Assembly: GCA_030581615.1 (NCBI GenBank)
Contig: JAKTTT010000072.1
Location: forward strand, 1 to 64,000
Source of the DNA: Alloascoidea africana
Taxonomy: Eukaryota; Ascomycota; Alloascoideomycetes; Alloascoideales; Alloascoideaceae
Reading direction: 5' to 3'
Length of the DNA: 64,000 nt
The notes beneath the pieces were generated by a model, which saw only the letters and a list, made by a program, of their open reading frames with translations, had not been told where the DNA came from and did not search any database. Shown one piece after another: positions 9,754 to 44,321 of the stretch. The position numbers were made by a program, and so were the translations under genes. Position 1 is the first letter of the stretch; each line of letters starts with the position of its first letter.

Positions 9754-11433
9754 CTATGCGAACGCAGCTAGGTTAAGGGGTACTGAACTTCCACGACCAG
9801 AAGGATACAGCTTCTGCTTTCCTTCGAACCTTCTGGGCTTGGGAATTTCCTTTTGGTTCTTGAAGACGAATCTCGAGTCTTCAATTGTAATTCTCTTTGC
9901 TGGTTCAGCAGGGTTTGATGCCGAAGATGTTCTATTATGACCTCCGGCAATTGTGTATAACGAAGGATCAATCTTACGTAAATTGGCCCCAGAAGCCTGT
10001 TGGCTGTTTATATGGGAATCTGGCTCTGAGCCGTCTGCATGAGAAGAGCCAAACCTTCTTGGAAATCGAGAGTGTCCTCCATTTGTTGTATGGTGGTGAT
10101 TATGCGCATGAGACGGGGATCCTGGCGCCGGAACTGATGGGGGCGGCGGTGGAACAGCTGAGGGAGCTTGTGATGGAGGTGGAGGTGGTGGTGGGGGAAG
10201 AGATGAAGATGCTACTGGAGCACGGCTAGTTGGTGCTGATCCAGGAGGAGGAGGTGGAGGTGGAGGAGGCGTACTTGACACCGAAGGGGGATGGATAGAT
10301 GGTGCCGGAGGTGTTAGAGAGCTTCTCGATGGAGGAAAGCTTTGAGTTGCTGGAAAGACTGGAACACCAGGTCCAGATGAAAAAGAGGGAGGTGCCTGTG
10401 GGGGAATCGGGGGAGGTGAAGGAGTAGACGCGCTTGAGCCAACTGAGGAAACAGAAGATGATCTATGACTTCGATTTCCAACCGCAAGAAGAGAAGATTT
10501 CTTTGGAGGCGGTGGTGCTGGGGACTTTCTTCCTACGATGGAAGCAATTGATGGTTTTGAGGCAGGTACAGGAGGTGTTCTTCCACCACGCCGTGAAGGG
10601 GGGTGGCTAGAAGGTGGCACTGGCGGTGCTGCTGAAGGAGGTGGCACGTCAGAATGTGCCCTGTTTCTGTTCATACCGGGAACTGGGGGAGGAGGTGCAC
10701 CTGGGACTGCTGGAGGAGTTCTCGAGGGGCTAGTTGATGCTGGCCCGAATCCAGGGTTTGATACATGACGAAGTGAAGGAAAGGTAGGAGCGTTTGAAGA
10801 TGGCGCGATAATAGTTGGGATCTTTGGAGCAGATGCACTGGGGGGTGGAGGTGGAGGAGGAGAGGATGAGTGAATACCTCCAGGTGGAATTGGCGGTGCT
10901 GGTGCTGATGGAGCTGCTGATGTTGGCCTTGGAGCTGACGAAATTCTTCCTTTTGAAGACATGGGTCGTGATTTTGGAACCAAGGATGGCGGAGTAGGAG
11001 CTGAAGGAGGTCTTGGACCGTCATTGACTTTCGATCCGACATGTCTCAATTTGGGCATTCCGCCAGCGAAGAGTCCCGCAAGCTGTGGTGGGCCAGCAGA
11101 AACTGCAGACTGATCATTACCTCTTCCATTAGCATTAGGCGATGAAGGCACCTTTGGAGCACGGCCTCCTGGAATTGGAGGTGCTGGAGCACCCATACCC
11201 ATACCCATACCCATGCCCATGCCCATGCCCATAGGTGGGCCAGAGCTTCCACCAGACTGACCTCCAACTACCGGTTTGCTTCGATCGTTTGTTTGGACAG
11301 TCTTCAGTTTCTTTCCTTTTCGTATATCTCCAAGAAGTGCGTCTACACTGACCGGAGGAGCTGAAGGTCTGGGACCTGCTGGAGCGCCTCCAGGAGGAGG
11401 CGGTGGCGGTGGTGGTGGCGGCGGTGCACCCAT
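9754..11433 (-). CDS. VRP1: verprolin/WIP, actin- and Las17-binding protein
   Basis: Proline-rich cortical actin protein of 559 residues that links actin to the WASP homologue Las17 and type I myosin at endocytic patches. After an N-terminal polyproline run come a WH2 motif (VDALLGDIRKGKKLK, about residues 30-44) and a second, weaker one (LAGLFAGGMPKLRHVG, about 118-133). A long proline-rich region with many PPPPP tracts follows. The C terminus has the WASP-binding signature RFVFKNQKEIPKPRRF and KLYPSGRGSSVPLNL. A (Met-Gly)n run lies near residue 70. S. cerevisiae Vrp1 is longer (817), mostly through more proline repeats. The start is ATG at 11433. The window also holds a type I myosin, its known partner. 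Confidence 0.93.
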   Translation of the reverse strand: MGAPPPPPPPPPPPGGAPAGPRPSAPPVSVDALLGDIRKGKKLKTVQTNDRSKPVVGGQSGGSSGPPMGMGMGMGMGMGMGAPAPPIPGGRAPKVPSSPNANGRGNDQSAVSAGPPQLAGLFAGGMPKLRHVGSKVNDGPRPPSAPTPPSLVPKSRPMSSKGRISSAPRPTSAAPSAPAPPIPPGGIHSSSPPPPPPPSASAPKIPTIIAPSSNAPTFPSLRHVSNPGFGPASTSPSRTPPAVPGAPPPPVPGMNRNRAHSDVPPPSAAPPVPPSSHPPSRRGGRTPPVPASKPSIASIVGRKSPAPPPPKKSSLLAVGNRSHRSSSVSSVGSSASTPSPPPIPPQAPPSFSSGPGVPVFPATQSFPPSRSSLTPPAPSIHPPSVSSTPPPPPPPPPGSAPTSRAPVASSSLPPPPPPPPSQAPSAVPPPPPSVPAPGSPSHAHNHHHTTNGGHSRFPRRFGSSHADGSEPDSHINSQQASGANLRKIDPSLYTIAGGHNRTSSASNPAEPAKRITIEDSRFVFKNQKEIPKPRRFEGKQKLYPSGRGSSVPLNLAAFA

Positions 11434-42807: not shown

Positions 42808-43280
42808 TTAGCCCGGCCCGATCTTGGGCATCTCGTTATGTTCAGATAACGATGCCAAGTATTGGTTGTATTCCGTTACTCTTTGCTCGTGTGTTTTTGA
42901 AGCTTTACCCCGGAGAATTTTCTCCAACTAGTTCAATGTTAGTGAGTGCTCACAAAACATAATTGCAAATAGCATACTCTTTTGCGTCTTGCTTCTTCAA
43001 ATTTCCTTTCAGACTCAGTCTTCGGAACCTCTTTATTGAATGTTTCTAACTCCTTTTCTATGAGGCAATCCACGGATCCATCCAGCTCACGGTTTTGCTC
43101 TTCCTTGTTCTTGTTCTTTCTGTCCTCACTTTTGGTATCGCTTCCACCAACAACGGCGCCATGGGTCGATGATTTCTTGCTCTTATGCCCGCTCTTGTTT
43201 TTTTTCTTTGAAATCTTGTTTGAATCGCCCTTAAACTTGAGACGGAGCTTCTTCTTCTCCTTCGTCGCGTCCTCTCCCAT
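42808..43280 (-). CDS. FAM32A-family protein (spliceosome-associated)
   Basis: Protein of 140 residues from exons 42978-43280 and 42808-42927. The 50-nt intron has donor GTATGC, branch CACTAAC and acceptor CTAG. Exon 1 encodes a lysine-rich N terminus (LRLKFKGDSNK, then basic repeats) and an acidic helix ending ERKFEEARRKR. Exon 2 encodes the conserved C-terminal block: GKASKTHEQRVTEYNQYL, then SEHNEMPKIGPG at the very end. This matches the end of human FAM32A, a factor that reaches into the spliceosome active site for exon ligation. The intron falls exactly at a codon boundary before the conserved block. The ATG at 43280 is preferred because upstream frame has no further ATG and no homology. 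The gene diverges from the pyrophosphatase homologue with 168 bp between. Confidence 0.9.
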
Positions 43281-43448
43281 GTCTCTCCTCCTACACCTTG
43301 TTTTTGGGATGTGGGCAGAGTGCGTTTCCGTAATACACCACCTTTCAAAGTCACGTGGTGTCACAACCGTGATGTTGTGTGCGAGAAGAGCTCATCGCCA
43401 TCGCTATCACAATCCTGAACCTTCTCTTTACTCGAAGAAACACCGGAA

Positions 43449-44321
43449 ATGGAGTTTTCTACACGTTCAATTGGGGCTCCCAACACTCCAGAGCATTTGG
43501 TGTATATTGAGAAGGATAATAGTCCTATTTCGACTTTTCATGATGTTCCTCTTTTCGCAGACAGCGTCAATGGGGTTTATAACATGGTTGTAGAGGTTCC
43601 AAGATGGACCAATGCAAGGATGGAAATCTCCAAGAAGAAGCAATTGAATCCTATCAGACAATGTAGTAAGGGAAAAGCCCTCAAGTATGTCAGAAACTGC
43701 TTTCCTCACCATGGGTATATCCATAACCACGGCGCTCTGCCACAGACCTGGGAGGATCCTAGTTTGGTGCATCCCGAGACGAAAGCTTTAGGCGATGATG
43801 GGCCCTTAGATGTGTGTGAAATCGGTAGTCGTATAGGCTACGTCGGTCAGATAAAGCAGGTTAAAATCCTAGGGATCATGGCCTTGCTACACAAAAATAC
43901 CACGGACTGGAAGGTAGTTGCAATCGATGTGGAAGATCCAATTGCTGAAAAATTGAATGATATTGAAGACGTTGAGCAGGAGTGTCCTGGAATTCTAAGA
44001 GCCTTGAATGAGTGGTTTCGAATTTATCACGTCCCTGAAGGCAAGCGCGAGGACTTTTTTGCATTCTCTGGAGAAGTCAAGAATAGAAAGTACGCCGATT
44101 ATGTCATTAAACAAGCAAACAAAGCATGGGAGAGGTTGATCAATGGCAACGTTTCTGAATCAACAAAGGTGGATATCACAAATGCAACTTTGACTGAAAC
44201 CCCGGGCTTTTGTGATGTCAGTGTTTTGAATCTTCCAGAGAACCAGAACTTGCCCCCTGCTCCTATTGACAAATCTGTTGAAGAATGGTATTTCATTCGT
44301 TGTGCTCCTCCTTCTCCCTAA
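43449..44321 (+). CDS. inorganic pyrophosphatase homologue, probably catalytically impaired
   Basis: A 290-residue protein that aligns along its whole length with S. cerevisiae Ipp1, with more than half the residues alike and no mitochondrial presequence. Family blocks are clear: [31 protein letters not shown] and [12 protein letters not shown]. Several catalytic or metal-binding positions differ from Ipp1 (numbered without Met): Lys56 to Arg, Arg78 to Lys, Tyr93 to His, Asp117 to Gly (GDDGPLD for GDNDPID), Asp147 to His, Glu148 to Lys and Lys193 to His. Glu48, Glu58, Tyr89, Asp115, Asp120, Asp152, Lys154 and Tyr192 remain. Loss of Asp117 and Asp147 should cripple hydrolysis. The frame is intact, so it may be a pseudoenzyme; a true pyrophosphatase gene is expected elsewhere. 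Confidence 0.92.

What the first reader, a model, noticed from the sequence alone, without database searches (positions are those of the whole stretch)
43449..44321. Pyrophosphatase homologue with seven altered active-site residues: a likely pseudoenzyme
The protein aligns end to end with S. cerevisiae Ipp1 yet differs at positions central to catalysis. Asp117 is Gly, Asp147 is His, Glu148 is Lys, Arg78 is Lys, Lys193 is His, Tyr93 is His and Lys56 is Arg. Asp117 is the residue that activates the attacking water and Asp147 is a metal ligand. The reading frame is fully intact and the rest is well conserved, which points to selection for another role (regulatory partner, binding protein or heterodimer subunit) rather than decay.
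Basis: partly seen in the sequence, partly recalled or inferred. Interest (0 to 1): 0.78.

Follow-up and report, generated by a model that had tools for sequence, protein, structure and literature searches.

The report
Catalytically dead yeast pyrophosphatase look-alike
A yeast-like fungus keeps, next to a normal copy, a second pyrophosphatase gene whose catalytic centre has been rebuilt so that it very probably no longer cuts pyrophosphate, which suggests it now binds or regulates instead.

Summary
The gene at 43449-44321 encodes a full-length family I pyrophosphatase (PF00719), aligned without gaps to S. cerevisiae Ipp1 over 284 residues. All seven named changes are real; D71C, G149N and E150T also differ. 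The same genome holds a canonical IPP1 (contig 10, 63% identical) and two PPA2-like genes, each with an intact catalytic set. Of 17 positions invariant in 28 other sequences, this protein changes six: K56R, D71C, Y93H, D117G, D147H, K193H. It keeps the direct M1/M2 metal ligands D115, D120, D152, plus E48, E58 and K154.

It is not decaying: pN 0.23 against near-saturated pS 0.74, no stop, no internal indel relative to IPP1, codon bias above neighbouring genes. Three of four gained histidines lie in the catalytic site.

Best reading: a maintained, catalytically dead paralogue that probably still binds Mg2+ and phosphate, most likely a non-catalytic partner of IPP1. Loss of catalysis is strongly inferred; the partner role is a hypothesis. 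Orthologues, expression and activity could not be tested. The paper listings seen named no natural dead family I pyrophosphatase.

The parts
43449..44321 (+). Pyrophosphatase paralogue (290 aa, called X72 here), one uninterrupted ORF, stop codon included
43617..43619 (+). codon of K56R (substrate-binding Lys in Ipp1, recalled)
   Evidence: K in 24 of 24 bacterial sequences
   Evidence: D in 24 of 24 bacterial sequences
43683..43685 (+). codon of R78K (conservative; column varies in bacteria)
43728..43730 (+). codon of Y93H
   Evidence: Y in 24 of 24 bacterial sequences
43794..43811 (+). metal-binding motif D115-N116-D117-P-I-D120 of Ipp1, here D-D-G-P-L-D: D117 (activates the attacking water) is Gly at 43800-43802; metal ligands D115 and D120 kept
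   Evidence: role of Asp117 from PMC11210485 (passages)
43890..43901 (+). loop D147-E148-G149-E150 of Ipp1, here H-K-N-T (D147H at 43890-43892); D152 and K154 after it are kept
44028..44030 (+). codon of K193H
   Evidence: K in 24 of 24 bacterial sequences
43281..43448 (.). 168-base spacer between the start codon of this gene and that of a gene on the - strand (MGEDATKEKKKLRLKFKGDS..., recalled resemblance to FAM32A), so the two are probably transcribed divergently
   Evidence: start codons chosen by eye, promoter role inferred only

Best explanation
A duplicate of cytosolic IPP1 that kept the fold, the dimer surface and the two-metal (M1/M2) site but lost the means to hydrolyse pyrophosphate. 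SHOWN from sequence: D117, which activates the attacking water, is Gly; D147, a ligand of the substrate-borne metal M3 (recalled), is His; the substrate-binding residues K56, R78, Y93 and K193 are replaced by R, K, H and H; a canonical IPP1 and two PPA2-like genes are present in the genome; and the altered copy is under purifying selection. INFERRED: the protein folds, dimerises and probably still binds Mg2+ and a phosphate or pyrophosphate-like anion without cutting it. HYPOTHESIS for the role: since yeast pyrophosphatase works as a dimer, the dead copy pairs with IPP1 (or with itself) and changes IPP1's activity, stability or Mg2+/PPi response, as dead paralogues do in other enzyme families. 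Probabilities: catalytically dead or under about 1% of Ipp1 activity, 0.85; kept by selection, 0.93; acts mainly through IPP1 as partner, 0.4; acts alone as a binding or structural protein, 0.3.
For: Six of 17 positions invariant in 28 sequences (Ipp1, three paralogues, 24 bacterial) are changed; K56, Y93, D117, D147 and K193 among them are catalytic-site residues by recalled literature numbering. Mouse PPA1 D117A made in bacteria had no detectable activity while wild type did (PMC3633968, passages). Asp117 and two metals lower the pKa of the attacking water in yeast (PMC11210485, passages). In a human PPA2 model the direct metal ligands are Asp164, Asp169 and Asp201, which map to D115, D120 and D152, and Asp196 (D147) is tied to M3 (PMC11766831, passages; the numbering offset of 49 is mine, not aligned). 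One canonical IPP1 exists. Constraint: pN 0.233, pS 0.738; in random-mutation simulations 0 of 200 runs at a mean identity of 64% stayed free of stops. Codon bias z = 3.20, 2 of 2000 simulations as high, against -1.35 to 2.11 for nine window genes and 9.06 for IPP1. Residues R51, W52, H87 and W279 (dimer contacts, recalled) are kept, W52 as in IPP1 and not F as in the two PPA2-like proteins. The yeast enzyme is mainly a dimer, with minor tetramer and hexamer (PMC10311840, passages). Dead paralogues that regulate an active partner are known: AdoMetDC prozyme PMC5201418 and deoxyhypusine synthase PMC3663545 (abstract starts), GMPPA PMC11228364 (abstract start).
Against: No activity, expression, partner or orthologue data. 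Some pseudoenzymes by sequence may have migrated catalytic residues (PMC10211241, abstract start), and D116 next to G117 or the new histidines could in principle substitute. The stricter test of active-site enrichment is only p = 0.079, and site changes are not more severe by BLOSUM62 than the other changes at invariant columns (p = 0.22). The protein evolves about seven-fold faster than IPP1 (branch 0.60 vs 0.086), so relaxed constraint is part of the picture. That it is the sister of IPP1 is not firm: FastTree joins them (0.905), but 7 columns favour this pair, 7 favour Ipp1 with IPP1 and 1 favours this protein with Ipp1; IQ-TREE's unsearched starting tree had Ipp1 with IPP1, and the alternatives are not rejected. 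Elevated codon bias could partly be inherited, though synonymous sites are near saturation. Nothing here shows that it meets IPP1.
Confidence: 0.62

Rival explanations
1. Remodelled pocket with a new ligand or chemistry: Y93, D147 and K193 all became His, which with the kept D115, D120, D152, E48 and E58 makes a His/Asp pocket that could hold a transition metal (Zn, Mn, Co) or a different phosphate compound. The protein would be a sensor, a metal-holding protein or an enzyme on another substrate.
For: Three of four residues changed to His relative to IPP1 lie at catalytic-site positions: 3 of 9 changed site residues against 1 of 97 other changes, Fisher p = 0.0017, a post hoc test. In a molecular-dynamics model of human PPA2 without M3, Asp196 interacts with Lys242 (PMC11766831, passages); by my offset of 49 these are D147 and K193, so H147 and H193 should be neighbours. 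Strong constraint on the rest.
Against: No structure: the single-sequence AlphaFold2 model failed (mean pLDDT 29.5), and no geometry was measured. The His test was chosen after seeing the data.
Confidence: 0.2
2. A slow but still working pyrophosphatase, or one that works with another metal or at another pH, its role being low-level or conditional PPi removal.
For: The direct metal ligands and K154, Y192, Y89 are kept; K56R and R78K are conservative; R78K and D117E variants of the yeast enzyme were studied as proteins (only a title in a reference list seen). A His could in theory act as base.
Against: D117 is Gly, not Glu; D117A in mouse PPA1 had no detectable activity (PMC3633968, passages); D147 and K193 are lost as well; a canonical enzyme is present.
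Confidence: 0.1
3. Gene in early decay or an ordinary relaxed duplicate without function.
For: Branch about seven times longer than that of IPP1; invariant catalytic residues lost.
Against: pN far below pS with synonymous sites near saturation, frame open and no internal indel relative to IPP1, codon bias kept; random mutation to a similar identity left no stop-free run in 200.
Confidence: 0.05
4. Sequencing or assembly error in an ordinary IPP1.
For: None found.
Against: 106 amino-acid differences from the genome's IPP1, on a different contig with different neighbours; the altered codons lie in an open frame.
Confidence: 0.01

Closest known systems
S. cerevisiae Ipp1, cytosolic family I inorganic pyrophosphatase
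   Same: Fold family, length, 59.5% identity over 284 gap-free residues, direct M1/M2 ligands, dimer-contact residues (recalled)
   Different: D117, D147, K193, Y93, K56, D71, R78 and E148-G149-E150 replaced; predicted inactive
The genome's own IPP1 (G000 contig 10, codons 148046-148909, L002)
   Same: 63% identity; nearest relative in the FastTree tree (support 0.905; the other two topologies not rejected)
   Different: Keeps the whole catalytic set, strong codon bias (z 9.06), other neighbours
PPA2-like genes (G000 contigs 109 and 13)
   Same: Same Pfam family, complete catalytic residues in both
   Different: 44% identity to this protein; N-terminal extensions; F52 instead of W52
Dead paralogues that regulate an active partner: AdoMetDC prozyme, trypanosomatid deoxyhypusine synthase, GMPPA
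   Same: Duplicated, inactive copy kept beside an active one of an oligomeric enzyme (abstract starts)
   Different: Other enzyme families; there the interaction was reported, here it is only proposed

Membership tests
Family I inorganic pyrophosphatase (PF00719), by descent | Sequence homology over the whole domain | tested here: met
   139 bits against cut-off 23.5, profile positions 1-153 of 153; Ipp1 chains at E 2.5e-120
Family I inorganic pyrophosphatase (PF00719), by function | Signature D-[SGDN]-D-[PE]-[LIVMF]-D-[LIVMGAC] (recalled PROSITE pattern) | tested here: not met
   D-D-G-P-L-D-V here: third position Gly; Ipp1 and the three paralogues of the genome meet it (read from the alignment)
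Family I inorganic pyrophosphatase (PF00719), by function | Catalytic Asp117, metal ligand Asp147, substrate ligands Lys56, Tyr93, Lys193 (roles partly recalled) | tested here: not met
   All five replaced; each invariant in 24 of 24 bacterial sequences and in the four other eukaryotic ones
Family I inorganic pyrophosphatase (PF00719), by function | Direct M1/M2 ligands D115, D120, D152 | tested here: met
   role from PMC11766831 (passages)
Family I inorganic pyrophosphatase (PF00719), by function | Measurable hydrolysis of PPi | not testable with these tools
   needs a purified protein
Pseudoenzyme | Loss of residues needed for catalysis in a homologue of an enzyme | tested here: met
   D117A inactive in mouse PPA1
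Pseudoenzyme | Kept by purifying selection | tested here: met
   pairwise with the paralogue only, dS near saturation
Regulatory dead paralogue (prozyme type) | Active sister enzyme in the same genome and compartment | tested here: inconclusive
   Canonical IPP1 present; neither protein has an N-terminal extension, but location was not tested
Regulatory dead paralogue (prozyme type) | Physical complex that changes the partner's activity | not testable with these tools
   only dimer-contact residues (recalled) seen to be kept

The most novel reading that the evidence does not exclude
The pyrophosphatase fold has been rebuilt into a new non-hydrolysing binding site: a dimer subunit with a three-histidine, three-aspartate pocket that senses a divalent metal or pyrophosphate and tunes IPP1. 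It would be a regulatory subunit for an enzyme that is usually thought to work as a simple homodimer.
Probability: 0.2. Interest if true: 0.75.

Novelty: new variant of a known kind. Interest (0 to 1): 0.5.

Why it matters
Cytosolic pyrophosphatase drives biosynthesis forward and is generally treated as an unregulated housekeeping homodimer (general knowledge). A maintained dead sister beside it would point to control of pyrophosphate level through a non-catalytic subunit. It would also give a natural set of active-site changes that keep the direct metal ligands but remove the chemistry. It is easy to test in laboratory yeast.

Tried and rejected
Structure: one single-sequence AlphaFold2 job on the window protein failed (mean pLDDT 29.5) and was not used; no fold search was run.

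Relatives elsewhere: none in viral contigs; 3 distant bacterial loci in genome contigs; 2 plasmid records matching at about 30% identity. None of these is a fungal collection, so this says nothing about orthologues.

Bacterial background: 26 loci, L015-L040 (24 of 50 genomes had a match); L012-L014 are the same places as L017, L016, L015 and were left out. The first version picked 19 of 26 with patterns, one of which itself contains Asp117, a biased filter. I discarded it and chose by profile search, which gave 24 of 26 (L020 and L040 not recovered).

Codon bias: the first version used wrong reference frames (antisense and mitochondrial-type ORFs); searches replaced it, with three EF-1A genes as reference.

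BLOSUM62 severity of site changes against other changes at invariant columns: no difference (Mann-Whitney p = 0.22).

Segmental duplication: among ORFs of 60 codons or more, no window ORF other than this gene and frames antisense to it has a match in 17 kb around IPP1, so the copy is dispersed.

Organism: not identified. A complex I 75 kDa subunit is present and matches the NUAM chains of 9iho and 6gcs best; S. cerevisiae lacks complex I (recalled). An early-branching filamentous budding yeast is my guess. The nearest lipases in the PDB gave no species match.

Print: ten paper searches. I saw listings only, all papers for (2; 4; 15; 2; 2), and 20 of 110, 233, 981, 24 and 352. No title or abstract start there was about a natural dead family I pyrophosphatase. 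Only open-licence full text is searched.

Full report
WHAT IS THERE. The ORF at 43449-44321 (+) encodes 290 residues without a stop. It belongs to PF00719 (139 bits, cut-off 23.5), and its best solved relatives are S. cerevisiae Ipp1 chains (E 2.5e-120, residues 1-284 aligned without gaps). It is one of four PF00719 genes found in the window's own 23.18 Mb, 138-contig assembly. The others are a canonical cytosolic-type IPP1 on contig 10 (63% identical to this protein, 79% to Ipp1) and two with N-terminal extensions on contigs 109 and 13 (44% to this protein, 62% to each other). I call those two PPA2-like from the extension and from similarity; location was not tested.

THE CHANGES. In Ipp1 literature numbering (Met not counted), Ipp1, IPP1 of contig 10 and both PPA2-like proteins agree at K56, D71, R78, Y93, D117, D147, E148, G149, E150 and K193; this protein has R, C, K, H, G, H, K, N, T and H. 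N116 is D here, but also D in one PPA2-like protein, so it is not counted. Against 24 bacterial family I sequences (24 of 26 loci), K56, D71, Y93, D117, D147 and K193 are each invariant, 24 of 24, while R78, E148, G149 and E150 vary. Seventeen positions are invariant in all 28 sequences; this protein changes six and keeps E48, P50, E58, Y89, G94, D115, D120, G141, D152, K154 and Y192. So the direct M1/M2 metal ligands (hPPA2 Asp164, Asp169, Asp201; PMC11766831, passages; offset 49 is my mapping, not aligned) are kept. What is lost is the water-activating D117 (PMC11210485, passages), the M3-linked D147 and the substrate-binding side (roles of K56 and K193 recalled).

IS IT MORE THAN CHANCE. 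Among 123 columns invariant in Ipp1 and the three paralogues, 9 of 17 site columns changed against 18 of 106 others, p = 0.0025. With 14 strictly chosen site residues it is 6 of 14 against 21 of 109, p = 0.079. The site lists are recalled from the Ipp1 literature. The site changes are not more severe by BLOSUM62 than the others (p = 0.22). I take this as moderate evidence that the site itself is released or remodelled; the loss of six universal positions is the stronger fact.

IS IT DEAD. Mouse PPA1 D117A had no detectable activity where wild type did (PMC3633968, passages). Here D117 is Gly and further universal site residues (K56, Y93, D147, K193) are replaced. I put inactivity (under about 1% of Ipp1) at 0.85. 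It is not measured.

IS IT KEPT. Against IPP1 of contig 10, pS is 0.738 and pN 0.233, giving dN/dS about 0.09 with dS near saturation. There is no indel except two extra C-terminal residues. In simulations of random mutation, no run of 200 at 0.2 substitutions per site (mean identity 64%) stayed free of stops; at 0.1, 6 of 200 did. Codon adaptation to three EF-1A genes is 0.521 against 0.442 expected from window codon usage (z 3.20; 2 of 2000). IPP1 has z 9.06, the PPA2-like genes 1.89 and 0.55, and nine window genes -1.35 to 2.11. This suggests expression above its neighbours but below IPP1.

ORIGIN. The protein evolves fast: branch 0.60 against 0.086 for IPP1 in the FastTree tree, which joins the two with support 0.905. 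The two other topologies are not rejected (AU 0.136 and 0.175, with too few replicates by the program's own warning); 7 columns favour this protein with IPP1, 7 favour Ipp1 with IPP1 and 1 favours this protein with Ipp1; IQ-TREE's unsearched starting tree had Ipp1 with IPP1. So a duplication inside this lineage is likely but not shown. The duplicate is dispersed; no other window gene is shared with 17 kb around IPP1.

HOW IT MAY WORK. Yeast pyrophosphatase is active as a dimer (PMC10311840, passages), and subunit cooperation has been proposed for family I enzymes (PMC11766831, passages). The residues that I recall as dimer contacts (R51, W52, H87, W279) are kept, W52 as in IPP1 and not F as in the PPA2-like proteins. 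A mixed dimer with IPP1 is therefore possible, with the dead subunit altering its partner. AdoMetDC prozyme, deoxyhypusine synthase (abstract starts) and GMPPA (abstract start) set the precedent. That step is hypothesis (0.4).

A BOLDER READING. Three of the four residues changed to His relative to IPP1 lie at site positions 93, 147 and 193: 3 of 9 changed site residues against 1 of 97 other changes, p = 0.0017, post hoc. In a molecular-dynamics model of hPPA2 lacking M3, the residues that I map to 147 and 193 interact (Asp196 with Lys242). A His/Asp pocket for another metal or phosphate compound is not excluded (0.2). No usable model was available.

LIMITS. No fungal genome collection was available, so orthologues, the key missing test, could not be sought. 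The organism is not identified. The literature statement rests on the listings of ten searches of open-licence text. Two of them asked directly for a dead pyrophosphatase and listed two papers each, none of which looked from title and abstract start to be about such a protein.

VERDICT. Observation confirmed and extended; the pseudoenzyme reading is supported; mechanism open. New variant of a known kind; interest 0.5.

Noticed in passing
L003 (G000 contig 109) and L004 (G000 contig 13): The genome has two PPA2-like pyrophosphatases, 62% identical to each other, both with N-terminal extensions and a full catalytic set: four family I genes in one fungus.
   Followed up: partly
L044, L045, L046 (G000 contigs 19, 20, 1): Three EF-1A genes; the one on contig 19 has clearly weaker codon adaptation (0.604) than the other two (0.844, 0.854).
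   Followed up: no
L047 (G000 contig 5:26-634) and L048 (contig 51:144641-145249): Two GTPase-domain fragments with the same score, frame length and printed ends, one at a contig end: an assembly overlap or a recent duplicate.
   Followed up: no
window 42939-43280 (-): Divergent neighbour starting MGEDATKEKKKLRLKFKGDS, which I recall as FAM32A-like; its frame ends after about 113 codons, perhaps at an intron.
   Followed up: no
window 9754-11433 (-): Very proline-rich ORF (poly-Pro runs, verprolin-like by eye), which probably explains the G+C and skew peak at 10-12 kb.
   Followed up: no
Hits H1 and H2 (Vibrio pelagius plasmids NZ_CP090616.1 and NZ_AP025505.1): A plasmid gene annotated 'ParB-like protein' lies under a match to 60% of the pyrophosphatase at about 30% identity: perhaps a misannotated plasmid pyrophosphatase.
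   Followed up: no
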